From contig CM055266.1 in NCBI GenBank assembly GCA_029237695.1, forward strand, positions 12,789,805 through 12,853,804: a stretch of 64,000 bases of DNA, written 5' to 3'. Under the pieces are notes generated by a model, which saw only the letters and a list, made by a program, of their open reading frames with translations, had not been told where the DNA came from and searched no databases. The translations under genes were made by a program, and so were the position numbers. This document shows positions 1,746 to 51,400 of the stretch, in pieces. Position 1 is the stretch's first letter, and each line of letters starts with the position of its first letter. This DNA comes from Conchocele bisecta. Its lineage: Eukaryota > Mollusca > Bivalvia > Lucinida > Thyasiridae.

Positions 1746-1751
1746 TTTTTG

Positions 1752-4400: not shown

Positions 4401-4404
4401 TGGT

Positions 4405-5345: not shown

Positions 5346-5544
5346 TACGAACAGATGGGTCTCCAACTTTAATATGTACAAAATATGCCCACCTTACGCG
5401 TTTAATTTTTGTTTTCCAAATTACATTTTTGACAACACTGTTTGTATAAGAATGTTAATACCTTGCACATGTACCCCTCGTCCGAACAACCAAGACCAAG
5501 GTCACCGATGTTAGCGGCGGCTATGAGCAGGTGAAAATAAATTT

Positions 5545-5757: not shown

Positions 5758-6048
5758 TACCGAGGAGTTGTGTTCATATTGTGCGGATATATGCCACGCG
5801 AGATTTAGTTTCATGAAACAAAGTCATTTTCTTATGTACGCTACTGAATACTTGCAACTCGCAAATATTTGAATAATTTCAGCCGTTCTGAAGATGGAAC
5901 TCACAAGTATGAATTTGTACCTTTTTCAACTCACAAGTCAAAATATGCACAAGTATATATGTGAGAGTCCGTCCGTCCGTCCATTTTGTCAGTGACGCTG
6001 CCTTGATATACTATATAATATAATAATATGTATATCTAAAAAGATAAT

Positions 6049-6121
6049 AGCGGACGATTTGACCAAATAGTGGACGAATTGACAAATAGCGGGCGATTTG
6101 AACAAATAGCGGACGGTTTGA
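6049..6121. repeat. Short tandem repeat, about 20-bp unit, four copies
   Basis: The unit AGCGGACGATTTGACCAAAT varies over four copies. It ends next to TTTGACTATTG. No gene lies within several hundred bases. Confidence 0.75.
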
Positions 6122-6499
6122 CTATTGTTTTTACTAGGTTAGCTACTTTGGAGCTACCTAGTATAGCAGTCATAGAGATGGAATGTCAACTATTTCTACT
6201 TTAAAACTACCATTATGAGTGTCGAATTTGTAATGTTTCATTACCAAATTTTACTGAATGTAAACTAAAGAATAAAGCACACAGTCTTAATTATATTTTT
6301 TTTTATTTACATTATAGTCAATGTTTTGTCCTACTGTCCCATTAAACAATAGATAACGGAACTGTCACCATAGGTATCGCACTAGTTTGGTCGAAGGAAT
6401 CCTTGCGGCCATTATGGCGACTTGTGAGGCCATATAAAGTTAATTTATTGAATATCATCAGACTTTTGGGGGAAAATACGGCGGTGTGTGTGTCTTATT

Positions 6500-8229: not shown

Positions 8230-8466
8230 TAAGTGCGTTTATGAAAGTTTGCATAGCTATTGAAATATTATGCAAATTGTCATAGCTACTAATGTTTGTC
8301 AGAGAACGGAAATACGTTTTAGAAACATTTTCAAAGCAACTAATATTTGTCTGAAAACAGTAATGTTATGAAAATGTTCATGGCGACTTCAATATGTATG
8401 ATGGATAGAATGGTTTATGAACATTTTCATAGTGAGAGGTATATTACATTTTATGAATATTTTCAT
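8230..8466. repeat. Diverged array of TTTATGAACATTTTCATAG units (left part)
   Basis: Blocks such as GTTTATGAACATTTTCATAG and GTGAGAGGTATATTACATTT recur with 40-60 bp spacing. The array stops exactly at the left edge of the element at 8467 and resumes at 10298, so the element was inserted into it. Confidence 0.75.
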
Positions 8467-8939
8467 AGGTTAGACACCACCAAATAGTTTTACTATATAA
8501 TTTAACCGAATGCCATCCAATAAGGCCAGTCTCTCCTACTTTCACTATTCGTATGGATGCTGTGGGACCCACTTGTACATGACCTGCAGCCAGTCTGTAC
8601 TGGTTCTGCATGAACTAAACAATAGGTTCACTTACTCCTAAGAAAGAAAAATCCAACCTTGTCATATCCTCCAATATTGTGTACATTTTTTGGCCACGGA
8701 AACTCCGTTTACATCAAGTGACCAACAGGGTCAGTGTTTTCTTTTAAATGCTACAAATATGCTGAAAACTGGTGTTGAAGGCACCCCAAAATGTTCCTCA
8801 AGTGAAACTGGGTAGTAATGGATCAAGATTTGCAAGCAAACGGTGTCTGTGACCTCAAAACACCCGCACTATTTTTTTATACCGGACTACTTTTGCATAC
8901 ACCCTGGGCGGTTTCGCACCATTTGGTGTCTTCTAACCT
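8467..8939. repeat. Left terminal direct repeat of the 8467-10297 element
   Basis: Starts AGGTTAGACACCACC and ends TTCTAACCT. Its sequence is repeated at 9825-10297. The short frame reading MSVTSKHPHYFF occurs in both copies simply because the repeats match. Confidence 0.85.
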
Positions 8940-9824
8940 ATAAGTGTACCAGTCCCACTACAAATCAGTCTACAATATTCACTATTCAAAAACTAGCTTC
9001 TATTCCTGGATACAGTACCAAGTTTGGAGCAAATATCTCAAATGGTTGTCACACAGCAGCTGTGTAACTCCACCATGTGACTGTCCACATTCTGCCTTAA
9101 ATTGAGCTACTACAGAACTATGGAGAATTTTAATAGATGATGAATTAAAAGCACAAATCTCCATAAAATCACATAACATTACCCTAAATAGTGTTATAGC
9201 TAACCATTCTACATATACAGACTCATCACTGAAACTATACCAACATGTATGCCACTCTGGAATGGTCGACAGACAAAAGGGTACTGGCTTGGAACGGTCA
9301 GTCAAGAAATTTGCTTTATAACACAGGAGGAAAGGAAAAACAATGTTTTCTGAGTACTAGTGTATTGATACTATACCGATATGCGAAAACAATACACTTA
9401 CGCCTAATTTTGGCAATTTGGTGGAACAGCGTCGCGATGTCGCGCCACTTTCCAGAACTTCTTAATTGTCCATCAGCATGCCAATATCAATGAATAAAAA
9501 TGAAAAACACACTATGATCACTGTTTTGCTGTATATTACTGTCATATTCCAAGCCCAATCACCTACAGGTAATTTGCATACACTGGTTTATTATATTTGA
9601 CTAAATAAAGCTGAGAAATCAAGATTTTAGAAGATTTTGAAGCCGATAACTGTCCGTCTGAGATACAAAAAGAACAAATATGTTGCATCGCGGAGTCCGC
9701 TCGATTATTCTTGTCGCAGTAACTTTAAATTATGTTCCCAGAGACATAGCTACAAGAAACATAAACTTCCAACTTCAAATTCTACAAACAAACATATCTC
9801 ACATAGGGCCTAGGCACACCTTAT
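8940..9824. other. Interior of the 8467-10297 element, non-coding
   Basis: 885 bp beginning ATAAGTG and ending CACCTTAT, a short inverted match. The open frames (up to 101 codons) show no reverse transcriptase, integrase, protease or gag motif. I cannot assign a function. Confidence 0.5.
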
Positions 9825-10297
9825 AGGTTAGACACCACCAAATAGTTTTACTATATAATTTAACCGAATGCCATCCAATAAGGCCAGTCTCTCCTACTTT
9901 CACTATTCGTATGGATGCTGTGGGACCCACTTGTACATGACCTGCAGCCAGTCTGTACTGGTTCTGCATGAACTAAACAATAGGTTCACTTACTCCTAAG
10001 AAAGAAAAATCCAACCTTGTCATATCCTCCAATATTGTGTACATTTTTTGGCCACGGAAACTCCGTTTACATCAAGTGACCAACAGGGTCAGTGTTTTCT
10101 TTTAAATGCTACAAATATGCTGAAAACTGGTGTTGAAGGCACCCCAAAATGTTCCTCAAGTGAAACTGGGTAGTAATGGATCAAGATTTGCAAGCAAACG
10201 GTGTCTGTGACCTCAAAACACCCGCACTATTTTTTTATACCGGACTACTTTTGCATACACCCTGGGCGGTTTCGCACCATTTGGTGTCTTCTAACCT
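9825..10297. repeat. Right terminal direct repeat of the 8467-10297 element
   Basis: Second copy of the 473-bp repeat. It ends CTAACCT at 10297, directly followed by TCATAGAGATATGG, where the interrupted array resumes. Confidence 0.85.
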
Positions 10298-27952: not shown

Positions 27953-28153
27953 TGTGATGTGACTGGAGAAATGGTGCTTGTGGACTGTGTGACCAGTGTA
28001 GCCCCAATCAACCGCGCAGTCTGATCAGGGCCTGCATCCGTAATGCTTCTAACAATCAATATAGATCGTTACCAAGCTGCATGAGTGCGCTATTTCCGCT
28101 ACATTGGTTACAAACCCCATTCGCCCCATTTCTCCAGTGACTGCCACATATCA
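27953..28153. mobile_element. 200-bp MITE with TGACTGGAGAAATGG-type inverted ends
   Basis: The left end (TGTGACTGGAGAAATGG) and right end (CCATTTCTCCAGTGACTGCC) are inverted. The interior has GTGTAGCCCC, CTGATCAGG and CTTCTAACAATCAATATAGA. Partial relatives occur at 7580-7745, 12070-12105, 28690-28830 and 34785-34960. It ends about 20 bp before the first supported exon of the host gene. Confidence 0.65.
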
Positions 28154-28172
28154 TGTCTACGCTACACCACAG

Positions 28173-28301
28173 ATGGGCATGGGCAGACAGCCTCGGCTAC
28201 AGGAGCTGCCGTGGGAGGGTCAGTAGCGGCACTGATTGTCATCGCTCTCGTTGTCGGCCTCGTTGTCCTCCACAGGAAAGGATACTCCATCCTGAAGCCA
28301 T
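28173..28301 (+). other. Host exon: transmembrane segment
   Basis: Acceptor CACCACAG, donor GTGAGT. Encodes GHGQTASATG, then a 20-residue hydrophobic helix, then HRKGYSILKP. It ends in phase 1. An alternative acceptor at about 28135 (TTTCTCCAG) lies inside the MITE end and is less likely. Confidence 0.75.
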
Positions 28302-31300
28302 GTGAGTTATGTGTTTTACATGCGGGGTACTCCATCATGGAGCCATGATATTTATTTGTTATACATGCGGGGTACTCCATTATGAAGCCATGATATTTAT
28401 GTGTTATACATGCGGGATTCTCCATCATGAAGCCATGATATTTATGTGTTATACATACGGGATACTCCATCATGAAGCCATGATATTTATGTGTTATACA
28501 TACGGGATACTCCATCATGAAGCCATGCGAGTATTGTGTTACACATGTGGGATACTCCATCATGAAGCCATGATATTTATGTGTTATACATACGGGATAC
28601 TCCATCATGAAGCCGTGCGAGTATTGTGTTACACATGTGGGATACTCCATCATGAAGCCATGCGAGTATTGTGTTACACATGTGGGATACGATCAGGACC
28701 AGCACTATTTGTACTTCTATCAATGAAACACCAGGCATGCTTCTAACAAGCAACATAGACCGTTGTAAAGCTACAGGACGGTGTGCTATTTTACCAGAAG
28801 TTATACTAATCACAAGTCATATAGGCCTCATTAAGCACGTCTCATTACTTTTTTTTGTATTGTAAATTCCACAGGTAAGAAGAAGAACAATTACAGGTGA
28901 GTCCAGTAGACAATGTCAATGTTTCCTTAAATACCAGCGGCCTTTCTCCAAACGACAACACAGATACTCGCTAAAACAACGTGTAAATTGCACGGATTTG
29001 ATTTTGGGGTTTGCACTCGATGATTTATGGAACGAGAACAGTATATTCACTATTTCTTGGCCGCTATAGTATTAATATTATGTCGATAAAACATAGTGTC
29101 TTCCTATATGATTCAAATATGACGAATAATTAAATGCGACTTTAAAAAATTTAATACCTGTCAGATTCGAAAGCGTTTCGCATCATTTTAGGCTTGGTAA
29201 TTATAGAACATTTACCTTTCATTTCAGCCAACATATGTATGACACCACTATGGAGGCCCATGGTCAACATGGTAGGTAACACACATGGTACAGCCGAGAT
29301 GATGTAGAGCCACTAGGTCCCTGGATGTCACTGGACGAGACAAAATTACATTGTGTGCGACCAGCATAGCATGTCCATACGATGGCGGTAAATGTAGTAA
29401 CGTCCATCATTGTTTCAACCGAAATGTATTCCAATATGTGACGACTGGACATGTACACTTTATTTCCTTAATAAATCATAATCTAACGATATACCGATCA
29501 ATGTTTAACCAGTATTTATTTTCGAAAACGATAACTTTTGTCACAAAGCTGGCGTCGTTCGTGTTGTCGTTCGGACATCTGTTCATTCTCATGTTCAATG
29601 CATACATCTTATATTCAAAAACAGGTTGATATATATTTGGTGATATATATTAGCTTTGTCACAACGTCCAGCTTGCATAACCCAGCGACTCAACGACTAC
29701 GTGTCATATGTTAAGGACACTTGATCATAACTTCCTTCTTGCGCCAGTCAACACAGACCACTTAATGAAATAACAGGTGTAGCATTGCTATGCAACTAAA
29801 TCATTCATTAACGATTTCATCCCACAACTGTTAGCATGTTAATAAGCATTGGCCCGGACATCCGCATGTCAACATTCACCATGAGCCACACACCTGTATG
29901 TGTGCTTAAACAATATATTCTGCTAGAATGACGTGCTATTTAATCATGCTTAGCAGGACTCTGGTGTCGTCAAACAAACCAAGTTGGACACGGTGGTCAT
30001 GGGTACGCGTCATTAAGTGCTAAACTGTCAAGATGTATTCTGTATAGTGGTATGTTGATAGTTCATCCATCTTGAAAGTATCGGAATTCTTAACGATAAG
30101 ATCATCGTATAAACATAAATTGATATATACACCATGTGTTACATAATAGTGTTTCTCTGGTTTGTATTTATAAATCATAACAGTTTAATGTTTTGTAATG
30201 AATTATACCTATGCATGGTTGATCTAATTGGTAAGATAATGCCAATGGATATCAATTGGCTATATTACATGTCAGTAAGACTGGATACATTTGTTGATAA
30301 ACGTTTATATATATATAACTGGAAACGTGCTTAACACCAATGTATGATCGTATTAAATTTACCAGATATGTTGAATAATCATGAACTGACGTCACCACAT
30401 ACTATTGAAAGTGGGTATTGTTTGGGAAGTTCTTGGAGCCTTGCTAAGCTCACATATTGGTAAAAACACGTTGATATGTGGCATATGATGTCTACGTAAG
30501 AAGTATAGAGGCGGAGCTATTGTACAACTTCTGTAAAATCCTAAAATACAAAATCAGTCCTCGATTTGAGAGATGAGAAGTAACATCTCTGAAATGTAGT
30601 GTAACAAGCAACGAGTGGATTTTGGCCACAAAGTTGATGAATGTTAAGCATATTATCAGACCATTGCCGAAACATCATGAACGTCACTTGTTGTTTAGAA
30701 AGTATATAGTGCTTAATACCTCCCGTATAAATGTATCATACCATACATACTCTATACATGTAGTATATCACACGTGACATCTGATATACGAGTACATGTA
30801 ATATATCATATATCCTATATATACGTAGTATATCACACATCCTTTTATACGTGTAGTATACCACATATCCTATATATGTGTAGTATATCATACATATTAT
30901 ATACATATACTACACACGAGATACATGTAATGTAGGACACTATATTTATATTTGTAGTATACAACACATCCAATTTACATGTAGTATATCACACTTACTT
31001 TACACATGTAGTATATCAAACATCATAATTTATATACATGTTGTATATCATAAATATATATACATGTAGTCAATCATACATCCTATATACATATACTACA
31101 TCACACATCCAATATACATGAAGTATATCACACATCCTATATACTTGTAGTATATCACACATCCAATATATATGAAGTATATCACACTTCCTATATACGT
31201 GTAGTGTATCAGATTTATCATACATCCTAATATACATTTAGTAATACGAACTATATACAGGTAGTATATCACACATCCAATATGCATGTAGTTAATTATA

Positions 31301-34300
31301 CATCCTATATATATATATATATGTATTAATTATATCACACATCCATGTTGTATTGTCAATTCCACAGGTAAGAAGAAAAACAAGTACAGGTGAGTGCAGT
31401 AGACGATGTCCATGTTTCCTTTAATGACAACGGCTTTTCTCCAAACGACAACACAGACGCTCGCTAAAACAACGTGTATATATAATAGATTTAATTTCGG
31501 GCTTGTACTTGATACTTAATGGACAGAAAACAGTATATTTCACTATTTCTTTGGCGTATGCCGCTATAATCTTACAATATGTATTGATAAAACATGTTTG
31601 TCTTAATTTATAATTTAAATATGACAAATAATTAAATTTGACATTAAACATTTAATGCCTGTCAGGTTCAAAAGAGTTTCGCATCATTTTAGGCTTGATA
31701 GTTATAGAACATTTACCTTTCATTTCAGCGATCATACGTATGACAACACTATGGCAGCCCATGATCAAGATGGTAGGTAACACACATCTAACAGCCGAGA
31801 TTATGTACAGCCATGAGGTCCCTGGATGTCATTGGATGAGACAATCTTACACTGTGTGCTACCAGCATAGCCTGTGCATACGCTGGTTGTCCACTTGTAT
31901 CACTCACCACAAACAACTCGTTCGTGGCATTGTCCTATTTTTTCGTCGGCTGGAATGACTGGGCAGATTCTCAAGAACTACTTGTCATGTGTCAAGGACA
32001 CTTGATCATAACTTCCTTCTTGCATAATTCACCACAACCCACTTGATGACATAACAGTTGTAGCAATGTTATGCAACTAAATCTTTCATTATTTATTTAC
32101 TTCCACAACAGTTGGTCTGTTAATGAGCATTGCACAGTACATCCACATTACATCATTCACTATGACCCACACACCTGTATTTGTGCTTAAACATTATGTT
32201 CGGCTAGAATGAAATGCTGTTCAATTGCACTTAGCAGGAATCCGGTGTGGTCAATCAAATCAGGCTGGAAAAGGTCGTCATGTTTACGGGTCATTGAGTG
32301 CAAAACTCTCAAGATATATTCTGTAATGGTCATTGTTGATCATTTTCAATAATCTTAAAGTATCGGAATTCTTAACGATAAGAACACCCTCCAAACGACA
32401 ATTGATATGTTACATAATAGTGTTTCTCTGGCTTGTATTTCTAAATCATAAATATTTTCCCATGAATTAGACCTATGCATGGTTCATCTAATTGGTAACA
32501 TAATGCCCATGAATATAAATTAGATGTGTTCACATGCAAGCGTCTGTCAGTAACACTGCATACACTTGTTGATAAACGTATATATATATAACTGTAAGCG
32601 TGTTTAACACCAAAGTATGGTCGTAGTAAAGTTACTAGATATGTTGAATAATCATGAACTGACGTCATCACATAATACTGAAAGTTGGCATTGCTTGGGC
32701 AGGTCTTGGAGCGTTTCCCAGATCACAGATTGGTAAATATACATTTAGTACGGGGCGCCATGCAGGACAGGTTAATTATGTGTACAAAATTGAGTTTTGT
32801 AACACTAAAAATCACAAAATTCAATTCTGTGTCACAAAATTCAATTCTGTGTCACAAAATTCAATTCTGTCAATTCTGTGTCACAAAATTGAATTCTGTG
32901 TCACAAAATTGAATTCTGTGTCACAAAATTCAATTCTGTGTCACAAAATTCAATTTTGTCAAGACAGAATTCATTTTTGTCCACAAAAATTAGTTGCGTA
33001 TGTCATCTCTACGTTGATTGGTTGAGATCGGTCTTAGTCCATTTTACTAGATGGTGGAGTACACTTGCAGGTTTAAATATTTCAATGCGAAAATATAACC
33101 CAATATATCAATATTATACTTCTTTATGGACAGTTATTTTGGTTATATTATGATTACAAATGAGTGGTCACACCATATAAGCATATATACTTTGAAAGAG
33201 AAATAAGAAAAATATTCAGAATTTTCCCTCAATTATGTAAACAGGGTCAAACATAAAGTAGCCGGGATATAGCTAGACCTGAGAGCATGCCCATATATAG
33301 AGAATACCAGGCTAGTGTATTTTGATATCAAGTTTATCAGGCAAGGCTAGGAAACGCGTAGGAATTCCGAGGCTTGCCGAGGAATTCCTACCGTTTCCGA
33401 ACCGAGCCTGATAAACTTGATATTAAAATACACTAGCCTGGTATTCTATTTATCAGGTAACGTTTTATGCTCGAAAATGACATTAGATGACGTCGTATTC
33501 TAACAGTAGATCTAACCTTGTGAAACAAATGGTATTGGATCTGTGTCTACTAGTTGCGAAGTTACGTGTTCGCAACTATGTGTCTACATGCATTATTTAC
33601 AGTATACACCATCTTAGTACATGTATCCATGGTATCTACACAAATACTACAAATGGTTTCCTCAAATGGCCCAATACACACATTCTGTTTATAAACACAG
33701 ACAGCAGTCAGAACACAGGCCACAGCGCGTGTATTATTGATTTAACTGGGGCAAATGTACCTTGCGATACACACTAAATGACGTCAGTACTCGCGGGAGA
33801 TCTACATGTACATGAATTATGTGTACAATTATAACGCAAATGAGTTTAAATACGAATGGGTTTGTCATCGTTTGACTGTTTGGAGATAGTTGAAGCAAAA
33901 TGGCAGAATGAGAAATGAATCATCGGCAGAATGAGAAATAAATCATCGACATTGAATGTGTAGATCGGCGACCGTGACCCATTTCTCCAGTGCAGTTTCT
34001 GACCAATGGTAGTCCTTCTTACATGCGTGTGCAGAATTGACAGAATTGAATTTTGTGACACAGAATTGAATTCTGTGGCACAGAATTGAATTCTGTGACA
34101 CAAAAGTGAATTTTGTGACACAGAATTGAATTTTGTGGCACAAAAATGAATTTTGTTGACAAAATTGAGCCATGTCCCACTTGGCGCCCCGTATTTAGAT
34201 GTGGCATATGATGTCTACGTCAGAAGTATAGAGGCGGAGCTATTGTACAAATTCTGTAAAATCCTAAAATACAAAATCAGTCCTGGATTTGAGAGATGAC

Positions 34301-37300
34301 AAGTAACTGCTCCGAGATGTAGTTGTTAATCAGGACACAATTTACATCAGTGTCGCATATGTAACATATCTATATGTCCCACCCATCGACTAGTCTGTGC
34401 ATTTTATAGAGAATCCCAGGCTCGTGTCTTTCGATGTCAGGTAACATTTTGGCTACATACTGAGTAATTATGGGTTTTTTTATGAAAATAACGCGGACTT
34501 TTATCGACAACGTAATTCCACTGACGTAATCCGGTAACGTCATGTGACTATGCAATTTAAATTTTCAATTTGTTGTAACCCGGACATTGGTATCAGGTCA
34601 ATGCAATATGTTATCAGTCAGTACCGGTACGCATTCGACCAGTACAAAGTTCGTTCCCTGATAAATTAACGTACACGTACGTGGCCTACTAACGATATGC
34701 AAAACTGTGAACGAAGTGTTACTTGTGTTTCAGCAATGTCCCAAGTCCAGGCTACGTCCACGGTACAACATGCATGGTATGTAAACAAATATGTGGCTAT
34801 GACTGGGGAAAACAGGCTTATGGGATTGTGACCAGTGTAGCTCCTGATCAAATAGCACTGCCATGTAGCCAGATAACGATTCTATATTGATTGTTAGAAA
34901 CATAACGGGGGTTTCCTTGATGGAATGGCGAACAGTGCAGAACCTGATAAGGCTGATCTCAAGGTTGATCTGGATCTAGCAATATCGTACTGCCAATAAG
35001 TGTATTTTCGTTTGTTTCCAAATACTTGAATACTGTGTTTATAAGCAAGAAGCATGATTGACTGCTTAGGCTCAGCCAAGGCAAGTACTTGATTGCGAGC
35101 TGAGATTGCCATAGATGTTCAAAAACGTTGACGACAGGGAAAGATTAACGAAGGTAGCAGTGTAATCAAGAGTTGATCAGTATACTCATCGATTATTCCC
35201 CAGTGCCTGTCACGCCAGGGTGACACTGTGATAGTTTATTGTTGGGACGGAACACCAAGTACGTTGTGGAAAGAGACAACAAGGTATACAGTTACAATGA
35301 TGATGTATTTATAAATGAAATATACACAAATAATGAATGTTCAAGACAGTACGGACAACGTCATCTCGAGGGTTCACCAAGGCACAGTCAAACAGCCAAG
35401 GCACAGTCACGATTCTGGAACAGGTAAGTATCGCATAACAATGTTCATCACGTTCAAGCTGCTAAATTTGAGTTTCTGTTATCTAACTCACGTTTCCACC
35501 ATGATGACGGTGACGTTATATGACGTCGTTAAGTTACATTAAATTATAGTATAAACGACTACTTGGGCGGATGGGGCGAATACATCACATGGGTGGACGT
35601 CATTTGAGATCCATCTCATCCTTTGACGGAATGACGTCACCGGAATAATACCCCGCTCGTTACGCCCTGGTGCACACGGAGCAGATTCCCCGCTGGTACA
35701 CGGTGTCGTGTAGTGGACCCCAGAATAGTATCAGTGCAGTGTACTGGTTCTACGCAATAACACCAGATGGAAGTGCCGTCGCTGATTGCTTGCTGGCTGG
35801 CTGACTGGCTGGGACTACAAAACACCAACGGTGTTGTTACCAGAATGTAACGTGTTATAGTCTCCATAATAGTAGTGCACATGAAATCATTATTATGATT
35901 ACATGGCTATACTAAACAACCTCGTAAATTACAATGATGAATCATCATAAATTGCAATGTACACACAGATATTTTCACTAGTTGGAAGAAGGGGGCTCAT
36001 GGAATTTATATGTCGGAGAATGCGATATAACACATTAATGAACAGCCACTATATCTAGTGTACCCAACGATATATATATTCACAGCCATACATGCGAATA
36101 TCGACGTCATTCAGTTATTTACCATTAGTAAACAAATATGTAATTGCGACCCGGCCTTACCCTGATCAGACTGCCCGTGGCCAACTGCGCTAATTTAATA
36201 AAGAGCAACTACGCCAAGATTTTCCTGTGCAGACTCACAATATTACATTACTAATGATAAACACTATAGACTCTAATCAGACTGTAGGATTCCACAGGCT
36301 GACCTAAAGCATCAGTGATTGAAATAAATTACACTTCACATCATGTCCTTATTACAGCTTACTGACGTATAGATCAGTGCATTTAGAGCATAACTGTATA
36401 CAAACTAAATTAACAAGAAGTATTACCAGCATGTGAATAAGAGTGTAAACAAATATTTATTTTTCTTCAGAAGAAGAATTTTCAAGAGAAATGTGAGAAA
36501 AAAATATGAGAATCGAAAGTATTGTTGTTGTTATTTCTCCGAAAGGTTGTTGGGAGCGAGATATTTTCTCGAAATATGAGAAAATATGAGAGGAAAATGA
36601 GAAATTATGTTTCGATTTGTAATAGGGTGATTGAGAAACACCCACCACCAGCGTTGATAGTTGAAATGAATAGCCTATAAGCAAGTGTTTAGTTTTAAAT
36701 TTTCAATAGAAGAAAAAAAAGTATATTCGCTAATATATAGGAACTATAAAAATATGCCTGCGAGAAATTTCTTCGGACGAAGAAAAATGAGAAAAGTTGT
36801 GGATGAGAAAAATATTCCGCCTCAACTGATTTATAGCGGTGTAGAAAAGCTTCCAATAACTAGAGATCAATTGCGAAAACAAGCGGACGATCTCAACATA
36901 CCATACAGTAAACGCCTAAGAGTTCCTGGGTTGACAAAACTAATTTAAATTTCAAGTGAAAGAAACGAAAACTAGTAGTTATTCAAACATTGAGTTAAAC
37001 CACATTTTCAAATCTTGTTTTAAACCTTGGTTTAAAACAAGATTTGAAAATTTTGCCATAAGTTGAAAACTAAGAGCAGAAGCCACATCTCTAGGATTGA
37101 CATACAGTAAACGCCTAAGACTTCCAGGGTTGGCAAAGAAGATAAACGAGGCTAAAACACAGCTTTCATGACTAGGTTTACCAGAGCTTACAAGCGAGGT
37201 GCATTCAATAACATAGACATTGCTGATAACGTTGGGCATATACTTGTGGAAGAGAGTGTTATGAGTCTGCGTGCCAATGCTATCGCGCAGAGAAAGACCA

Positions 37301-40300
37301 CACAGAAAGTGGAACAGGTACCGAAAAGGAAGTTGAACCGAAAGTTGGTGAACGCAATAGCCGACGAAGGTGAGAAGATATTAGGCAGCCACGACGAAAG
37401 TAAGGAACAAGTGGAGAAAGGTAGGATAACCATAGAGCTTTATTTTCGTAAGGCCATAGACGGGACAATATCTGAAAGGATAGTTGACAAGTTGTCTCCG
37501 ATGCTGACGAGCAACTTCTATCTGAGATACTCTTACTCTTACAAGCTAGCACACATAGACGAGAAAGACAGTCGCGGTAGAGCGCAAACTATAATATTTC
37601 ACAAATACATCGGAGGTAGTCAATGGATGAGTTCTTACGAGGAGGTAGGTACATGGGTGGAGAGACAAGAAGAAACGCGTATGAACCTGGATAAGGTAGA
37701 CAGACCAAGCACGAAATGGACGTTTGTCCGGTGGGTAGAAGTATTCTTAAAATTGGTTTTGGGTGGCAGGAGGATGAAAGACACAGGGTTAGCTTCGACA
37801 GTAGCATCCGGAGAACCTATTCCGGATTGGTTGAGGAACAAGAAGGGTATGTACTCGTTAGACAAATACAACGACGATATGTGTCTTTTCAGATGTCTAG
37901 CTATTCATTTGGAAGATGTTCGAGCGGACAGGTGTTGTGGTATGGCACGAGGTATGGCTAACGAGTATTACGCGAAAAACGAGAAAACCGCGAGTGAACC
38001 GGTTCCTTTCGAGGACATGAAGAAAGTGGAGGAATGTTTCAGTGTATGAATAGAAGTGTACGATCCAACGGAAGAAGGAGTGTGGTATTTGAGAAAGACA
38101 CCAGCACACTACGAGGAAGAAGGAGAGAATAAGATGACGAGCGATTGTTCAATGACCACCAGTTCCTGATAATAAACATAAAGAATCTAACACAAATATA
38201 CTGCTGCTATGACGGCAGACAGAGATTCACCAACGCTAGCAACATGAAGAGGCACGCTGCAACATGCATGAGGGGAGAGACCGAAGTCGTGTGCAAAGGT
38301 AAGATGATAGATAGGCCAAAGTCAGCGTTTGAAAAAGCCTTCTATCCAAGATCGCACGCCAGCAAAATGTCTATAGACTGGATAAAATATTTAGAAGTCA
38401 AACACATACACACAGCCAGGTGCGGACACGGAGGAGAAAGGTGGGTCGCAGGGGCTCTGGTCGACGGATACTGTAGGGAGACAAATACCGTGTACCAATT
38501 CCACGGTTGTCACTGGCACGGATGTCAAATCCACACAATGCGCATGGTTAAAAGTATCAAAAGACTCTCGATAGCGACGCGGCAATAATCACAGCTGGCT
38601 ACACACTCGTGGTTATTTGGGAGTGCGAGTATAAAATTCTAAAGAACTTTGAAGATTTTAAACGACGTGATCCACAAGCAGAACAGACGGTCCCGGAGAC
38701 CGAGTGGTACACGCAACAAATAGTGTACGACTTTGAAGCTTATCTAGACGCCAACGGAGGTGAGATAAAAACTGAAGACGTAGAGTACGAGGTTGCCCAC
38801 GTCCCTATAAGTGTTTCAGTAGGCGACAGTCTCTCAGGAACGACAACACACATTTGCGAGAGAGATCCTGACGTTTTGGTATCAAAAGTTATTGAGAGAG
38901 TTGAAAAGCAGAGGTAAAAATATCAAAAACGATGTGCACCGCAAGTACATGACGACTGATATGGACAAACTCCCGGAACCACAAGTCAAAGCTATTAAGA
39001 TGTGGATAGAACAGGTTCCCGTGGTAGGATTCAACTGTGCACCGCAAGTACATGACGACTGATATGGACAAACTCCCGGAACCACAAGTCAAAGCTATTA
39101 AGAGGTGGATAGAACAGGTTCCCGTGGTAGGATTCAACTCCTGTAGATACGACATACACATGATAAAGAAACATCTCGTCGGTAGACTGGCCGACACAAC
39201 CGATACTGTCATGGTCGGTAAGAAGACAAACACGACGATATTTATGTTCACTCAGGAATTCAGGTTTCTAGACATTGCTCTGTACATGGGACCTGGAACT
39301 AGTTACAAGTGGATCAAGGCATACGACTGTTCGATGCACAAGTATTTCTTTCCATACGAGTGGTTCGACTCCCCGGAAAAGTTGGACTTCGATGGTTTAC
39401 CAACCATCTAACACTAGTACTCCAAGTTGCGAGGCGGATACCTGCTTACAGAGAGCGAGATAGAAGCGTGCAACGCGATCTACAAAGAGCAAAACATGAA
39501 AACATTCGCGGAATGGCTGCGATACTACAACGTCCTGGGCGTCGCACCGTTCCTGGAAGCGTTGGGAAAAATGTGTAACTTTTACAAAGACAGAGGAGTC
39601 GATGTTCTGAAAGACGCAGTAACGTTGCCAGGTGTGTCTCTGCAATATTTGTTGCGAGGAACCATCAAGGAGGACGCTAAAAGCTACAGAACAAAGGAAA
39701 ACGCAGCCGCATACGCAAAATGCCCACCACTGTACGCACCCGAAAAGGAAACTTACGACATGCTGCAGGGAGCTCTTGTCGGAGGACCGTCTATAGTCTT
39801 TTCGAAATACGCGGAAGCCGGAGTATCTAACATCCGGACGGATAAAAATAATAAATGCGGAGTGGTGCTCGGTTACGACGCTAACGCACTGTACCTGTCG
39901 ACTCTGAGGAAAGTGATGCCTTGTGGTAAAGAAATCATCCGACACGTTGGAGAACCTACAAACCAGATGGTCGTGGACAGATTCTCGCAAACAAATTTGA
40001 AGTCCGAGTGGTTCGGATTTGCCGAGGTGGATATCGAGGTGCCGAAAAATTTACGGAAACACTTTTCGGAGATGTTGCCACTGTTGAAAAACAGGGTCGT
40101 CGAAGAAGAAGAGGTTCCAGATCATATGTTGAATTACCTAGCGAATACAGGTAGGAACAATGGGGATGGCAAGAAACTAGTCGGACCTCTTTCCGCCAAG
40201 AATACGCTGATGTACGCACGCTACTGAAGTGGTATCTGCGACACGGATTGGAGATAACTGTGGTGTACAGAATGTTGGATTACCAAGAAGGAAAGCCGTT

Positions 40301-43300
40301 CGAATGGTTCGTAGACGAAATAACTGCGGCACGTAGAACCGGAGATGTCGACAGTAGCATAGGCCGTTGTAGCCGAGATATTCAAGTTGGTAGGCAACTC
40401 TTGTTGCGGAAAGATGATCGAATCTTCCGAGCGCCATCAAAACACAACGTATACCAAGAACGAGAGCTTCGTGGACAAAGCTTTTAGATCCGCATTCTTC
40501 GAAGATATCGAGGAGATTGGAGACTCTTACGAGATATCTAGCAGGAAACCGAGAACAGTGTCTAGACCGTTTCACTGCGGGATAGCAGTTTATCAATTGG
40601 CAAAGTTGAGAATGTTAGAGTTCTACTACGACTTTCTAGACAAATACGTTGACCGAAGCGAGTTGATACAGATGGATACTGCCAGTATGTATATAGGAAT
40701 TTTCAGCAACAGCCTTGATTCAATGGTCGACTCTTTCGCAAAAGAGAAACGAGATTGGCTCGCTTGTGACAAGTGGAGCAACCGCGAACCTGGACTCTTC
40801 AATATGGAGTTCAGCGGAGACCGAGCGATTGCCCTGTCTAGCAAGTGTTATATTGTCGAGGACCTGTCGAAAAACTCCACGAAACATTCTGCCAAAGGTA
40901 TGTCCAAGAGAACAAACAGTATGAACTGGGAAAGATACAAGAAAGCGTTGGATGGTGGTAAAGACATCGGAAAAAACAGAGTTTTCAGAATGAACAGCGG
41001 AGTTATGAAGACTTACTCGCAGACAAAGTTGGGACTATCCGCATACTACGATAAGAGAAGGGTTTTACCAGACGGTATCCACACGGAACCACTAAGTTAG
41101 ATTAACTAAGATTTAAACCGATCTAATGTGTAGTTTTGATAAGTCACGTAAGACTATTTTGGTGAGGTTATTTGTCAGACATTGTCACTACGCCACAGCG
41201 ATTATGACACCCACTGGCCACCATAACGCTAAAGATGTGCAACACACCAGCGAGTTATCGTTATATATAGAGCGACTCGTCGCATGTGCCTTAAAATTAA
41301 ACCAATAAGCCACCACTCGTTATATCGGCTGATTTTTGACACAGTTTAACGGCGGTCGGATAGGAACGCCGCTGTCATGTATCTACCTTATCCGACCACC
41401 GCTTGCCTATATCGGGGGCACCCACACAAAAAAAGCTGGTCATATCTAAATGGGAAACATGTTTATATCAGCAGACGACAATGTTCCAAGTACACGGGTA
41501 ATGAACATGTGTATATATAGCCGAGTGTATTTTTGTCTTATCGAGCTTACACCGACGGCAATTACACCGCTTATTTATAGCCGAGTGTATTTTCCCTTAT
41601 CAAGGTTACGTGATTACGTTTAATTTTAAAACACATGCGACAAAGTATCGAGTCGCTCTCTATATATATGACGATAACTCGCTGGTGTATTACACAGCTT
41701 TAAGCGATAGGTAACCACGGCGGTGTATTGGTTTAATTTTAAACCACATGCTACAAAGTATCGAGTCACTATATATATACACATCTTTAGCGATATGGTG
41801 GCCAGTGGATGACATAATCACGTGAGAGTAACGAGGATCCGAACAAGTTTTATGTTCCATATGCCGGCGCCGACGGAACTGCTGGACTGTATGCCGCTAA
41901 GGCGGGCGCTCCCCGGCTGGTGCACCCCACTATCCAAGTTCGCGGCGGAACAGGCTTTCAAACTTCCCCGATATTTTTGAACAATAAAGGCTGCCCAAGA
42001 TTACTACCATGGAGGCCGTGAACGGGTGGAAAGCAACACCGATGCAGTTTTGGCAGAATCAGCTCAACTTCGCCGTATGGTGCGCAAGAGCCGGATGCGG
42101 GGTTTCCTCTCAGGACCATTTGGCCGCGGAGGATCCCTTCTTGAGGGCCGTCTACGACTTTCACGCGTACCATACTATTAGGCGGATTCTCAAAGAACAG
42201 AAAACCTCTCTGCCGCAGGACGACGGCTGGAATCCCATTTCCTACGCACACGACCGTAGGGCGTTGGAAATACTGTGTTTTCCAGCATTTCCTAGCAGCA
42301 CTGGCCTCGGGGACGTTCTCATTCGAGGCCACGGGATTTGGTCGCATACGGATTTTAGGCACGATCACTCCGGTGACCACATCGTCAGTCGGAACGCCGG
42401 GAATTTTGACCCCGCGACGATGACCTTCGGGCCGGAAGTGTCTGGTGGTCGGCACTGTGGCGTCCCATCCTGTGATTGGCTACCTCCGAAACGAGCTCAC
42501 GTCGATTACATACAGCAGGCTGCTGCGGTCGACGACGCGTGGGGTACATTTATGTCAGATAAGAGTCTGGGGTTCACGCAGGCCGGGGTTCCTCGCCGCC
42601 TCAACGACTCCATTCGCATAACGTCTGGGCCTTCCTCGGTGCACAGGCTCAAGAGCGCAGTGCTATGCTGGGCACGGGAACGGCGTTCGATACCCAGAAA
42701 CAGTTCTTGGCAAATGTCGAGGACGCCATCTCATCTCCGGTGGACCTCCCGGCGGCAATCCAGCGGTATCAAGACGTTTTGCAGTATGCCGGCACCCCAG
42801 TAGACTATGTATTTGGAATAGGTCTGTATATGGCGCCGAGAAATATGATACTACGAGACGACCGGGTTGACGGTTACAATAATCAGATGGTAATCGCCAC
42901 CGTCAAACAAAAGATCGGCCATAACGGGAACGTGAATGCGGATATCATCCGGACGTTTTTGATAATATAGATAGCAAGAAGGAGACGAGACCCCCAATCT
43001 GGCAGCGCGGCAGCCACCTTTTCTGCTAATTTAGCCAGGAGACTGGCGGGGGCTTTCAGTTGCTTTTTTGCCCACTCCTTGGCTCCACCGGCCGGCGCGG
43101 GTGCTGGCGCGGGTGCAGCCGCCGCACCACTACCACCACCCGTGATGGCTAGAACTAGGGTCGATATAGTCATGCCGAGAGCTGTGAGGATGCTTACTAT
43201 CGTGACGCCCTGCTCTCTGAACAGAGTGCGAAAACACTCACCGAGTGTCGTGTCCTCGTGCAGGACCCTCGAGATTGTTTCGCGGATCCGACTTATTTGG

Positions 43301-46300
43301 GAGCGGAGCGCCTCATGGTTAGTCGAGGCAACCTCGAAGCGAGCTTCTCTTTCAACTTGCAACGACCGCAGGCGTTCGGTGATCCGCTCAATAGATTCTC
43401 TATCGTCACGGGCTTCTTCCAGTTTTCTTTCTTCTAGTGCGATATGTTCATCCAGCGCCGTGAGTTTGGCGAGGTTAAGGATCAGTTCGCCCCGGGCTGT
43501 TTGCATAGCCTTATCGAGTCCCCAGAGTTCGCGAAGGTTTAACGGTGGGTCATACATCGTGCTGAGTATTCCGTATATCTCGCTTTCGCTGAACGTGGTC
43601 TCCATAGTGTGAATAGTGTCGGTGGCTACACGAGGGTCCTCGCTGAGCTCGGCCATTTGTATAGCGGCGGCCGTCTTCACCATCGTTTCGTCGGTATACT
43701 GGAGGGCTTTTACCATTTGATCAGGCAGCTGCAACCGGTCGCCGATCACTCCAAGAGCTCGAGCGAGGAGTACTCCATATCGGTTCACGGAAGAGGCGCT
43801 GAGGATCCGGGCCGGTCGTTCTTGAACGTCAGCAACTTCCAGTTCTTGCCCCATTTTACCCACATGTCTCCTCTTTCAGTGCTGCGGAAATCCAACGTGG
43901 CCTTGCTACCGTGTTTAGACACCTCACCTACCACCGTTTCACCCGAGACTCCGTTTCTCCGGGAGGCTCCAGCTCATCATTGGAGATTCCCGCAGGAATC
44001 TCGGTACCGCCCGCCTATTCCTGATTCTCGGGTGGGGCCAACCACATATCGTCAACATTGCCAGCAGCTGAAGTTCCTAGCAGCTCTACGAAGGTCGTTT
44101 CGTCATCATCGAGGTAATCGTCGCGGTCGCTCGTAGTGCGATCAAATTCGTCCATGTTAATGTCGTGACCAGCCATCGTTTCGATGTATTGAACAAAAAC
44201 CGATACAGGTTTAATACAGTTTAAACTATGTCTTCGAATCAATATGGGCGCAAACTCAATCCATACCACAGACTGCGGGAGCCTCTTGGGGCAAAAGGCG
44301 TGAGACAGAGCGTTGTTATTACGAACAAACCATCGACGATCGACCATAACCAGCAGCTCTTGGACCGCTTCCCCAACCTCGGAGCTAACGACGTCATTTT
44401 ACCGGGAACTTTTCACCTCGCTTTCACTATTTCGCTGACGTCGACAGACGCGGACCGAACCGTCGTTCAGAACCTGGGTCGCGCCATCGTCAAGAAGACC
44501 ATAATAAAGATGTCTGGTAATGAGGTGATGTCGATCGACGATAGCGACGTCTACCATTGCTATCAGGACCTGTGGAAGACAGCGCAAGAGCGCGAACACG
44601 CGGTCTACTATCAGGGTATTGACACCAGCCGAAATAGGAACGTAACGAGACTTAGAATCGGGGCTGGTGACAAGGTAGATAACGTCGCGAGCGACAACGC
44701 GATCGCGACCGCTTACGGCTACCGCTTTTACATCCCGCTCGACTTTAAGTTGCCGGAGAGCCACATGCCATATTATCAGAGTGCTTTTGCCGACCGCCTC
44801 GAATACGAACTAACGTTCAACGACTACGGCCGAGTTCTCATAGCCACTGACATGGCGTCGACGTATACGATCGACAATGTGTCGCTGGAGTACAACATGG
44901 TCACGATGCCCGAACTCGCGCGATTGATCAGAACCCAGTACGCCGGGCGCATTGTCATACTTTACGATCGAGTTCTTCGCTATCGCAAGACGACGAAATA
45001 CAAAACCGACACATCGTGTAATATTAATGTCAACGTCCCTGCCCGCTCGATGAACGGTATACTGATGCTGTTCGAGGAGGCTCGGATCGCATTCGGGGCT
45101 AGAAAAACAGACACATTATATAACCCCAAGGAGTCGCCAATCAGCTCTACAGCCAGCGCTCACCAGCAGTGGCACGAAGTCAAAAAGCAGTTTGCTGCCG
45201 TCTCTAAGCGCGCCCCGAAGGTTGCCGCGGTTGTCAAAGACCTGCAGCTCTCGGACGTCTCCATCGCAGAGTTCCTGACTTCCAAGTACGCGCTATGGCT
45301 AGACATGCGAATGCGACGACAAACTGCACGGTAGTGGACGCCAAGTTGAGAACGTGAGCGAGGGTGTGACGATCCAGATAGCCAAAGAGGCGGACGGCAA
45401 AGCGCATTGAACGTGTACATATATATAATCACAGATGCACAACTCAACATCGAAGATGGTCGATATGTCTCAGCATTCTACTGAAAAACCTCTGGGTTTT
45501 ACGAAGGATGCCCACTCTGCCATAATATGTGGGCAGACAGGATGTGGAAAAACGGTTTTCATCTTGGACTTTCTCGAGCGCTTCTACCGCGATGCCTTTC
45601 CACACATTGTGATCCTGTGTCCCACTGGGCGGCACAACAAGGCTTATCAGCTGCGCCCGTGGATATGGAACGACCCTGAGGTATACGTCGTTAACCCCGG
45701 CGACAGGCTTCATGATTGGCAGCGTGGTTTCTACCATGTATTTCAGGGCGAGCCCATCTTATACGTGATTGACGACTGCTCGGCCAAGGCGGCGATGACC
45801 AAAAAGGAAGACGGGCTCTCCGAGCTCGCATTTTATGGCCGGTATGCGGGGCAAAGCGTATGGATCTCCACTCAGAAGAACAAAGCCGTCCTCAAGGATC
45901 TGCGCGAGCAAACGAAATGGGCCGCCCTCTTCCACTGGAAGGACCGAGACTCATTCGATGACTGTCATCGAGAGAACGACGTTATCCCAACGTGCGAGGA
46001 GCGGCTGGAGGCTCGACAGATGCATTCGGAAACTAAGCAGGCCAAGCTTCTGTTAAATACTGATCAACTGCTTACAAAGTAATAATTGCTAAGCAATTAT
46101 TAAGCGCAGCTTAGATTGAGCTTAGCGATTGTTAGTAACTGTTGAACAATTGTTAACAAATGCTGAACAAATGCTTAAAACTGTTCAACAAATGTTTAAC
46201 AAATGCTGAACAATTATTAACAAATGCTGAACAAATGCTGAACAATGTTTAACAAATGCTTAACAAATGCTGAACAAACGCTGAACAAATGCTGAACAAT

Positions 46301-48371
46301 ACTTAACAAATGCTTAACAATGGTTAACAATTGTTAACAAATGCTGAACAATGCTTAACAATTGTTAACAAATGCTGAACAAATGCTTAACACTGCTTAA
46401 CAAAAATGATTAACATTGCTTAACAAATGCTGAACAAATGCTGAACATATGTTGAACAAATGCTTAACAATTGCTGAACAATCTGGGAATCAATTTGTTG
46501 CTCTGCTGTGAGCATAACGGTGATCATAAGTATCGGGTGGTGCACTTGGCAATATGTTAGACTTATGAGGCTAGTCAGAATAGCACTCAAAATGAACTGC
46601 GACGAACTTCTCGATCAGCTAATGGAAGAAACAGTCGTGCCGACTGTCGGTACGACTACCGACACGGCTGGAACTGTGGGAACGACTGCCGACACGGCTG
46701 GAACTGTAGGACCTACTGCCGGCACCACTGCCTACATGGCTGTCGGCACGTCAGAAATCGCTGCACACTGGTTACAGGGGAGGGGGGGGGGGGGGCAGGC
46801 CGAGCAGTATCTGAGGCGACTTCTCATAGTCAATCAAGTGGATAAGATGCCACACGCAGAGATTGAGAAATGGTATGCCCGATATGGATCGCGGCTAGGC
46901 GCGGTGATGACGAAAACCCTAGGGGCGGCAGCCATTCAGCTATACGCAGCCGCAGCGAGTACGTTTCTGCCAATCCAGAATCAATCGAGATTGGTCGACG
47001 ACCTCGAGACTGACCCTTTTGCCGGACACACGCTATGAACAGCTTGCTGCGTGATTTACCACAAGTTTGGCATTTTCTTAGCACCGCTGACAACTGCGTT
47101 GACCACAGCTAAGCACTGTCAATTTGGACATACATGCCCACGAACTATTAGCTCAGAAAATGATGACAGAAGACGCACCTGCGAGAGTGACGGAGCGCTT
47201 TCCACAGAACTATCAGAGATTGTGCCGCAGAAACAATCTCCGATTGCACCTCAGGAGCAAGCTTCGGTTGCACGACACAAAAACCCAAAACGACAGGCAG
47301 CTGGGCGGGCAGCGGCTGCTGCCCGAAAAGATAAACAAGATAAAATACTCGCCGAATTTCGAGAAGCTAAACAGTCGTTAGTTGTTCCAGCCGCTGTTGA
47401 AACAGCAAAACACCCGATAGCGGTTCCAGCGGAACATCCGAAGGCAGCTGCGGTTCAATCTCCGACAGTTCCTGTGGAACGGGCTCCGACCTGGATCATC
47501 CCGTGGGTGGTTGGTGGTGGTCTGGCAGTTACAAGCACCCTGTGTGTGTTCCCACTGCGGAACTACCTTTCGCGACAACCAGCTGCGGTTCCGAAGGAAG
47601 TTCCGAAACCGATTGCGCCCCATTTAAACACTGCTCGTGATCCCTTTTATATGCAATAACTGTATAGCTATCATTATATGTAATGGCTGAATACGATGGT
47701 AAAATAATAGTGAATGCGGTTTATCACGCCGTGGTGATATCGAGCCTCCGTATCGGGTTTGCTAGACTATCAAAGATGGTCTTCGGAGGGCCCGCTCACA
47801 AGTTGGACATGATTGCGAGAGACGTAGGTCTCGTGACCTTAGATGTAGCGGCCGCAGTTGGGACCCGACATTATCTAGTTAAAGCTGGAATTGTACCTGC
47901 TAATATATGGAAATAATGGCTTCGATCACAATGCTCGTATGTGGTGCGGTGGTGAACGCATTGGCGTTCAGCGGTAAAAACATTATATTCTCGAATCTGC
48001 GAAGCTCGGACGTAGTTAACGAGCGCAAGCGTCACGATTTAGCTGTAGAACAACTCCAGAGCGCACACGCAGCATGGTCACGAAAACGAACCGCCCGTCT
48101 GGACTGGATCAACGAAGATCTTCGCCGCGAGAATCACGCCGTGCAAACTTTCCGGAGCGTTGACACCGCCATCCCCGAGTACGCGAGGGCATATCCTCAG
48201 AAAAGTCTCGCGCCGTTGGATCCCGAGCCCCCGCTTTCAGACTTCTATGTGCCGTCAGAGGCCCAAAAAGACCGCGAGATCGCGTTCGTCGTCATGGGAA
48301 TGGTTGCGACAGGTCTCGTCAGCTACTATATTGCAAAGCAATAATTGCGTAGCAATTAAGCATTTCAACTT

Positions 48372-48427
<56 letters not shown>

Positions 48428-51400
48428 CGATGTTAGTTGACGAGCTTTATTTCGCTCTGCTTGATGAAGGCTACACGGTCCTTAAACACCGTTTAGCTGG
48501 CGCAAAGGGTCTGATCTGTCTGGCCCAGGATTCTCTCGAGACGTGGCGCGAGGACGAAAACACGGCCGCCCTTTTCGCAAAGCGGATGTTAGATTCCTCT
48601 GAGTACCTTTTGAACTTAACCAGCAGCTGCAGTAAAACTTCTAACAAAGGTTTAGTATTGACGACGCAGTTACCGGACGATCTGGCGAGGTCATGTTGGA
48701 GACTGTTCGATCTTCTTGAAGACCTTGCATACGATGGACACGCACAAGCTTGATAGAAAACAATCGGTGCGCCGAGCGCGCAAGCTAGCGAACACATACT
48801 ATAGCCCCATCGGCTACTAGAAGGGACTCGCGGCCATCAAGAACATGGCCGCTGCTGCCAAGGTTTACGAAAACACCGCCAAGGAATGGCTCAAGAAGCA
48901 GGCCATCTGGCAGATCTATTTACTCGCGCCGCACTGTATTCCACGCCCGGAATTCGACGTGTCGGTGCCGAACGAAGTCCACCAAGCAGACCTCCGGTTT
49001 CACCCTCACGATCGCGTCGGTCGCAAGACGTACAAGTACGCCCTGACAGTCGTTGACGTAGCGAGTCGCTATAAGGAGGCTGAACCGCTGGCCACGAAGG
49101 AGTCCAAGGAGGTGGCCGAGGCTCTTTTCCGCATATACAAGTGGAGCCATCTCAAATGGCCGAATCTTCTCCAGGTCGATCCTGGCCGCGAGTTGTTCGG
49201 ACACCAATATGCCAAAGAGCTTGTAGACCATCATACGCGATCGACCGAGTGGGTGACCAGGTCGCCCGCCGTGGTCTCTGCACTGAACGGCGAGGTGACC
49301 AGATTGATCGGCAAGAAGCCCCGTGAATGCCATCAAGGCGAAAAAGGTGACGCACAAACCCTCTGCCGTCTCGCGCGGGCGGCCCGTTGGTTTAGCGAAG
49401 CAATGGCTTCCATCGGCATGTTGCCGTCCGATACCTCAATCAGCGCGGAGAGCTTGAGGGCGGCAGCCGCCGCGCGACTGATCCCGTGTGGTCTCTCAAT
49501 GTATATCATCTGGATCGATATATTACCAAACCCGATGAGCCCGTGCTCTACTACATCGACAGTGGTCCATCGCGCGGGTTTGTTCGAGAATAACATCTTG
49601 CTGTGCCTTCTGGCACCCAACTTCACCCGGACCGCCCGTCGTCATAGTCTATTAATAGAAATATTTCGTGTAGGGTTAGAACGTACGTGTATGACGGTTG
49701 TGATAAACTATTCACCAGTGGTCTGACCTTATATAGACATAAGCTTTTGAAATGTAGTGGAAAGGCGGCGCGGGATGAGAGAAATAACGAATGGGTCGAC
49801 GCGCAGGGAGTTGTGTTTCGAAAGTAGTTTACTCTAATTTCGGAGAAATAAAAACAACAATACTTTCCACTCTCATCTTTTTTTCTCACATTTATCGTGT
49901 GAGAAAATTATTCTTCCCAAGAAAAAATCCTCAGAAATTTGTTTACACTCTTATTCAAATGGTGGTAATACTTTTTGTTTATTCAGTTTATATACAATTT
50001 CGAGGGGTGTGGGACCGTAGAGTGTAGGGGCACTATGTAGGTTGGTGGTATCATTTTAACTCCCTATATACTACTACTGTTACGGGTTAAAATTGGCAAT
50101 ATTCTAATGTATTGTACATGGCGCAGGACTGATATTGGACTGAATCGTAATATAAAATGCATGGCTAAATGTTAGTAAACATTTCAATCGTGTTCGTCCT
50201 TCGTTTACAAATAGAATAAATTGCTACTGCAAATAGTCGGAGTGACATGCAAAACACACATGAGAATAATATGCCATTACAATACTCACATAATTCTCCC
50301 ACATGCGAGACCTGTACTCGTTATCATGTACACGTTATTAATGATTCTGTTCGATTTGATTAAGGAGATAATCTACACCAGCGGATACATGCCATACGGC
50401 TTTTATTAACCAAGCATTTGGTCGAAATGGGTCAAAATAAACGAAATAAGGCAGTATTATCGAGGATGCGATACTAATGCGGTGAATTGCCAGTCTTGAC
50501 GTTATTTGCAGCATTTGAAAGTAAATAATAAACATATGTACTTACCAGTTCACAGTGACAGCTTGTGTCACTAAGTGATCACAAGAATGATTGAATGTCC
50601 GAATGTGCAAGAATATGGATACGATAGTTTATATACATACTATAGTGCATACGTTTCCTTTCACAGTTGGCTTACAATTTTGCGTAGGTGGAATAATGTT
50701 GTAACAGTCAGTCTAGCTCATGAGATATCTGGCGAATTAATCTGAAATAATTCAGTCATCAGTAGATATGACCTACTCGGTATTTAGGCTAGCATCAAAC
50801 AGTGTAAATCACTCGTATGTAACCGGTGTAAAATACAATACTGGTGGTACTTGCACGGTTCGGATAAAGCGCTATTGTCTCCAAAGGTGTATTCCACGGG
50901 AGCGATATTTCACACACGAAGACCTATTCGATACTCATTACAAGACTATTCGCTCATTGTGTTATAGTATTGTGTAACTCGTGTTACAAATGATGGATGA
51001 TAGAGAAGACAGTCGGCTACAATTCGTGACATCATGTATGCCAGAGCCAAATCCAACACACATCCCATATAAATGTAGAATGTCACACATTCTTTTTACA
51101 TGTATATCACACATTACAATTATATACATGTAGTATATAATAGTCATAATTATATACATGTAGTCATATATATATGTAGTATATAGTAATCATATATATA
51201 CGTAGTATCACACTTCCTAATACATATAGTACATAATACTTCCTATATACATGTAGTATATAATAGAATAATTTATACCGCAACCATTGCTCCATGTACC
51301 ATAATAAAGGGGGTTGAATAAATGTTGTTTATAACTGAAGTAACCCAATATATCTGAAGTAAGTACCGATTTTGCCTTTATTTGTTCACCTTTGACCCCT

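What the first reader, a model, noticed from the sequence alone, without database searches (positions are those of the whole stretch)
36393..49998. Fossil Maverick/Polinton sitting in an intron of a host receptor-like gene
The element is delimited by about 150-bp inverted ends and lies wholly between host exons C (34734-34776) and D (53129-53211), whose phases match. It carries polymerase, integrase, ATPase and capsid-type genes. Survival of the host frame across it suggests the host gene tolerates an 18-kb intron.
Basis: partly seen in the sequence, partly recalled or inferred. Interest (0 to 1): 0.85.

Follow-up and report, generated by a model that had tools for sequence, protein, structure and literature searches.

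The report
Old Polinton nested inside an intron
A decayed virus-like mobile element (a Polinton) sits inside another transposon inside an intron of one copy of a large animal receptor-like gene family; the nesting is ordinary genome biology, with an unusual gene order and a repeated tyrosine-motif exon as side points.

Summary
The element is real: a decayed Polinton/Maverick with polymerase, integrase, ATPase and capsid-type genes. The left end lacks about 82 bp. It did not enter the intron directly: it lies inside another repeat (35208-51040). A related gene at C6:103.09M has exon C and the intron flanks without that 15.8-kb block, which carries an 8-bp duplication; a second related intron was uninformative. 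Exon D matches 39 other places; of 20 read, 20 keep length and splice edges, 19 are open. So "Polinton in an intron of a receptor-like gene" holds; transcription was not tested. Unexpected: of 30 sisters probed, 22 show the polymerase right of the capsid gene on the other strand and none shows the window's order; one further copy does. Module flips are already published for vertebrate Mavericks. A new member of a known kind; modest interest.

The parts
28138..28301 (+). candidate host exon with a transmembrane stretch; 3' end runs into a 45-bp tandem repeat
   Evidence: open frame with AG/GT edges, sequence; phase does not fit exon B directly; inference
29228..29271 (+). duplicate of exon B within an 83% tandem duplication (28855-29385 / 31348-31886)
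   Evidence: exon limits read by analogy with exon B
31729..31772 (+). host exon B (44 nt), phase fits exon C
   Evidence: limits read by eye
34734..34776 (+). host exon C (43 nt)
   Evidence: AG/GT edges; aligned without gaps in one related gene at C6:103.09M
35200..35207 (.). left copy of the 8-bp target duplication of the outer insertion (CCAGTGCC)
35208..36397 (+). left part of an outer repeat (39 other places scored, 86-92%)
36393..36397 (.). left copy of Polinton target duplication ACTGT
36398..50075 (+). Polinton/Maverick, left terminus lacking its outer ~82 bp
36398..36544 (+). left terminal inverted repeat, truncated (similarity to the right repeat runs from 36392)
37156..41100 (+). 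protein-primed B-family DNA polymerase gene, broken into several frames, with a 103-bp tandem duplication at 38933-39139
41200..41819 (.). imperfect hairpin region of unknown nature at the polymerase/capsid-module junction
41958..42970 (+). gene whose 5' part is missing compared with sister copies, frames broken
   Evidence: inference
42883..43875 (-). open frame of 330 aa (stop to stop), function unknown
44228..45334 (+). major-capsid-type protein gene, shortened at its 3' end and with a 12-residue gap
45438..46082 (+). A32-like packaging ATPase
   Evidence: Pox_A32 24.1 bits, cut-off 22.8
48821..49649 (+). retroviral-type integrase, frame lost in the C-terminal part (by eye)
   Evidence: rve E 1.3e-5, below curated cut-off; DNA match to sisters ends at 49229-49649
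49838..50075 (-). right terminal inverted repeat, complete, ending ACTACT
50076..50080 (.). right copy of Polinton target duplication ACTGT
50076..51040 (+). right part of the outer repeat
   Evidence: absent from the related empty intron; copies elsewhere not tested (search not answered)
51041..51048 (.). right copy of the 8-bp target duplication (CCAGAGCC)
51949..53113 (+). 27-bp minisatellite of the host intron, shared with two related genes
53129..53211 (+). host exon D (83 nt), encodes YESL-x10-YEEL

Best explanation
Three layers. (1) A member of a large gene family with a tyrosine-motif exon has an intron between exons C and D. (2) An outer transposable repeat (about 2.15 kb in total) inserted there and duplicated 8 bp. 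(3) A Polinton inserted into that repeat through its integrase, duplicating ACTGT, and then decayed. Its outermost ~82 left bases were lost, most simply by a small deletion between AACTGT at the target and AATTGT in the inverted repeat. The Polinton belongs to a minority lineage in which the polymerase module lies on the same strand as the capsid-integrase module. The intron can presumably be spliced as before. Shown: homology, termini, both duplications, the empty intron in one related gene, exon conservation. Inferred: order of events, mechanism of the left loss, splicing.
For: Capsid-type protein has 1006 relatives and a polymerase piece 927, with PF03175 on many of the 120 listed. Family termini are AGTAGT/ACTACT; of nine end pairs, five have an exact 5-bp duplication and three match at 4 of 5 bases by eye; one more exact one was read by eye. 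ACTGT on both sides here. 28 of 28 left-flank matches stop at 36397 while the query runs on to 36760. The related intron at C6:103.09M joins 35207 directly to 51049, with one copy of the 8-bp word, and neither related intron fetched matches the element. Exon D: 20 of 20 read copies keep AG/GT and 83 nt, 19 of 20 open. Exon C aligned without gaps in the one related gene read.
Against: No transcript. Continuity of the outer repeat across the Polinton site in other copies could not be tested. The two 8-bp words differ at one base. The empty site is a related gene (86-87% in the flanks), not the same locus in another animal; that gene also lacks 34835-35073, and the second related intron fetched (C6:100.03M) matched only the minisatellite, so the empty site is seen in 1 of 2. 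One of nine left termini could not be placed. The transmembrane exon does not join exon B in phase.
Confidence: 0.85

Rival explanations
1. Polinton inserted directly into the intron, with the flanking repeat an unrelated later insertion that cut off its left end.
For: Left terminus is truncated where the repeat ends; no outer terminus found elsewhere in the window.
Against: ACTGT on both sides, and an 8-bp duplication enclosing repeat plus Polinton plus 965 bp on the right, all absent in the related intron.
Confidence: 0.08
2. Left end was already short when the element integrated, so the integrase used an internal end.
For: Target duplication of normal length sits directly at the short end.
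Against: AACTGT (target) and AATTGT (internal repeat) are near identical, so a small deletion after insertion explains the same picture.
Confidence: 0.2
3. The window element is a chimera of two copies rather than a lineage with its own gene order.
For: Sister left arm missing and a gene at 41958 cut; 0 of 30 sisters probed share the order.
Against: Both ends share an inverted-repeat interior not found in the three sister ends compared but found in other copies; C1:195.5M has the same order.
Confidence: 0.25
4. The host locus is a dead copy of the gene family, so the Polinton sits in a pseudogene.
For: Window exon D differs from the majority codons by 4 amino-acid changes and 1 silent change; exon B is duplicated.
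Against: Exons C and D open, splice edges kept, both YxxL motifs kept.
Confidence: 0.35

Closest known systems
Vertebrate Mavericks (PMC8097293; section 7 read, passages)
   Same: (AGT)2//(ACT)2 end motif, pPolB, integrase, ATPase, capsid genes, most copies degraded; module orientation known to vary (cane toad, Xenopus tropicalis)
   Different: 5-bp instead of 6-bp target duplication; two module orders seen among related copies of one genome; protease not recognised
Polintons as described in PMC11071308 (passages only)
   Same: pPolB, RVE integrase, packaging ATPase, capsid-type protein
   Different: protease and minor capsid not identified; copy decayed
Bivalve Maverick load, Mercenaria genome paper (PMC8905726, passages only)
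   Same: thousands of Maverick copies (7091 in its table); genome size implied by the table about 1.86 Gb (my division)
   Different: species of the window is not identified

Membership tests
Polinton/Maverick | protein-primed B-family DNA polymerase | tested here: met
   piece 40363-41100: 927 relatives, PF03175 on many of the 120 listed; Pfam on the window pieces themselves gave no match
Polinton/Maverick | retroviral-type integrase | tested here: met
   rve E 1.3e-5 (25.9 bits, below curated 32.6) and PHROG transposase E 3.3e-4
Polinton/Maverick | A32/FtsK-type packaging ATPase | tested here: met
   Pox_A32 24.1 bits over cut-off 22.8
[quoted passage not shown]
   Capsid_N 17.4 bits under cut-off 24; relative P0063 named major capsid protein; model too poor, pLDDT 45; no solved relative
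Polinton/Maverick | Ulp1/adenain-type protease | tested here: inconclusive
   none among the frames scanned with Pfam, some sister left-arm frames included; not every frame was scanned
Polinton/Maverick | minor capsid protein | tested here: inconclusive
   several unassigned frames
Polinton/Maverick | terminal inverted repeats with conserved end motif | tested here: met
   AGTAGT/ACTACT; window has it on the right only
Polinton/Maverick | short fixed-length target duplication (6 bp in vertebrate Mavericks) | tested here: met
   fixed length, but 5 bp: exact in 5 of 9 pairs and here; a difference in length from vertebrates
ITAM-like receptor tail | two YxxL/I motifs 6-12 residues apart (recalled definition) | tested here: met
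   YESL-x10-YEEL in window; both motifs kept in 16 of 20 copies read, counted by eye
ITAM-like receptor tail | membrane protein signalling through a tyrosine kinase | not testable with these tools
   only a predicted transmembrane exon, phase to exon B unresolved

The most novel reading that the evidence does not exclude
Within one Polinton family of one animal genome, two module orders coexist: polymerase at the right end on the opposite strand (majority) and polymerase at the left on the same strand (window, C1:195.5M). The second looks derived, since it cuts a gene that is longer in sisters, yet it is found at more than one site. A virus-like genome flipped a module and stayed mobile.
Probability: 0.5. 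Interest if true: 0.45.

Novelty: new member of a known kind. Interest (0 to 1): 0.33.

Why it matters
Mostly as a clean layered example: host intron, outer repeat, Polinton. The coexistence of two module orders in close relatives could show how Polintons rearrange. The host gene family, with 40 matched places in the genome (own included) for an exon that encodes two YxxL motifs, may be worth more attention than the transposon.

Tried and rejected
C4:9.1M shares both junction sequences, but they lie 28.9 kb apart; the probe on its polymerase side (L104) did not match and a neighbouring probe (L105) showed a capsid-module piece in the other direction, so it is not counted as one element. Led nowhere: viral-contig scan with the ATPase, structure model of the capsid protein, solved structures, Pfam in host stretches on the + strand (nothing above cut-off, upstream of the window: a tandem repeat scoring as Phasin_2), one literature search on ITAM in bivalves (listing only). 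No claim is made that the two-order finding is absent from print; one search on Polinton inversion and gene order listed 3 papers, none opened.

Dating: no absolute date is given. Inverted repeats differ at 18 of 153 ungapped positions and the nearest capsid copies are 88% identical, so the copy is not young, but rates are unknown.

Error noted: the printed intron length for the related gene (5528) and the printed 'without' length rest on rough arithmetic and a failed text search; from the alignment and coordinates the related intron is about 5.5 kb.
Full report
What the sequence shows. The window lies at C2:12789805-12853804 of a 1.89-Gb genome in 1196 contigs. Named relatives of the capsid-type protein among the 120 listed include one from the sea slug Elysia and two from Thiodiazotropha bins (symbionts of lucinid clams, recalled). 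This suggests a mollusc, but the species is not identified. The inverted ends are real and far above chance.

Element identity. The frame at 44228-45334 has 1006 relatives at E 0.001 or better; the 120 listed are 59-68% identical and mostly about 430 aa long. The window copy lacks 12 residues inside and its C-terminal part. The piece 40363-41100 has 927 relatives, with the polymerase domain PF03175 on many of the 120 listed; the polymerase pieces of the window itself gave no Pfam match. The ATPase frame passes the Pox_A32 cut-off and the integrase frame matches rve below its cut-off. Polymerase and integrase are split over several frames, and a 103-bp tandem duplication, one base different, lies in the polymerase gene. 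In the genome 39 other capsid copies at 85-88% were scored, out of 5044 first-look candidates. This is a decayed member of an abundant Polinton family.

True ends. In vertebrate Mavericks the commonest end motif is also (AGT)2//(ACT)2 (PMC8097293, section 7). I picked nine pairs of ends. Five have an exact 5-bp duplication, three match at 4 of 5 bases (by eye), and in one the left terminus could not be placed. One further sister has an exact 5-bp duplication, read by eye. The published vertebrate length is 6 bp. On the left of the window, 28 of 28 matches to the flank stop at 36397, while the 11 matches to the inverted repeat begin at 36395 or later. ACTGT stands on both sides, 36393-36397 and 50076-50080. 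The left end starts about 82 bp inside the normal inverted repeat. The target word AACTGT and the internal word AATTGT are nearly the same, so a small deletion between them is the simplest cause; this is inference.

Nesting. The stretch 35208-36397 is the left part of a repeat scored at 39 other places (86-92%); 31 of the 39 matches end at 36397, though that query ran only 3 bases further, so one search is the better evidence for the edge. I fetched 5.5 kb beside exon D in two related genes. In the one at C6:103.09M the intron runs from exon C, without 34835-35073, to 35207 and then straight on at 51049. The word CCAGTGCC at the joint occurs as CCAGTGCC and CCAGAGCC around 35208-51040 in the window. 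The other, at C6:100.03M, matched only the minisatellite, so it neither supports nor opposes. Neither matched the Polinton. So the intron received an outer element with an 8-bp duplication, and the Polinton is inside it. Whether other copies of the outer repeat run on into 50081 could not be tested; six tries did not complete.

Host gene. Exon C (34734-34776) and exon D (53129-53211) have splice edges and matching phase. Exon D with its flanks matches 39 other places, 25 of them on C6, from only 44 first-look candidates. Of 20 of the 39 that I read, 20 keep AG and GT and the 83-nt length, and 19 are open; one has a stop. Against the majority codons the 20 show 48 amino-acid changing and 26 silent codon changes (65% changing, 74% expected without selection), so constraint is mild. 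The window's own exon has 4 changing and 1 silent change, which fits relaxed selection but is a small number. Exon D encodes YESL-x10-YEEL, an ITAM-like arrangement (definition recalled); both motifs are kept in 16 of the 20 (by eye). A transmembrane exon lies at 28138-28301 and a duplicated exon B at 29228-29271 and 31729-31772, but the transmembrane exon does not join exon B in phase. On the + strand of 6401-36391 Pfam gave nothing above cut-off; 1-6400 and the - strand were not scanned.

Gene order. I probed 30 of the 39 other capsid copies. In 10 of 10 whose ends were fetched, the polymerase lies to the right of the capsid gene on the opposite strand, and in 9 of these the integrase is seen before it; no polymerase was found on the left (nearer left pieces were fetched for 7 of the 10). 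In 20 further copies tested with one 800-base probe a side, 12 show it on the right and reversed, 8 show no polymerase in either probe, and none on the left. The window has the other order, and so does C1:195.5M: polymerase forward, capsid forward, integrase end next to the terminus. A 1.5-kb stretch read between its polymerase and capsid gene does not match the window, so the two share the order, not necessarily the same junction. Both window ends share an inverted-repeat interior that the three sister ends compared lack but other copies have. In sisters 3.0-4.4 kb of left arm precedes the capsid module (C12, C3b, C9, C10) and holds the start of a gene that is cut in the window at about 41961 (inference). 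So the window order looks derived. Polymerase matches are patchy and mostly 72-86% identical in seven of the ten sisters but mostly 87-93% in C8, C12 and C3b, while integrase pieces are mostly 84-92% in the nine that show it; this suggests exchange of polymerase modules. Variable module orientation is already described in vertebrate Mavericks.

Verdict. Ordinary in kind: a decayed Polinton nested in another repeat in an intron.

Noticed in passing
53129-53211 and 39 places in G000: Exon encoding two YxxL motifs ten residues apart, repeated in a large gene family, 25 of 39 places on contig C6; looks like an expanded ITAM-like receptor family.
   Followed up: partly
28855-29385 and 31348-31886: Tandem duplication (83%) that doubles exon B; 44 nt is not a multiple of three, so both copies cannot be used in a row.
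   Followed up: no
window coordinate about 70615-73058 (L012-L013), minus strand: A second, different Polinton polymerase (70-82% identical pieces) close by.
   Followed up: no
L028 (C3a right end); C7:70.90M: A short palindromic piece with Polinton-like AGTAGT termini, like a small non-autonomous derivative; a pair of ends about 1.05 kb apart at C7:70.90M has a perfect 5-bp duplication.
   Followed up: partly
8465-8939 and 9823-10297: 475-bp direct repeat, 100% identical, 1.4 kb apart.
   Followed up: no
28280-28690: 45-bp tandem array made from the end of the transmembrane exon including its splice donor.
   Followed up: no
46128-46482: Minisatellite between ATPase and the next frame of the Polinton.
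   Followed up: no
L011 (upstream of the window): Tandem-repeat stretch that triggers Phasin_2 and Apolipoprotein matches.
   Followed up: no
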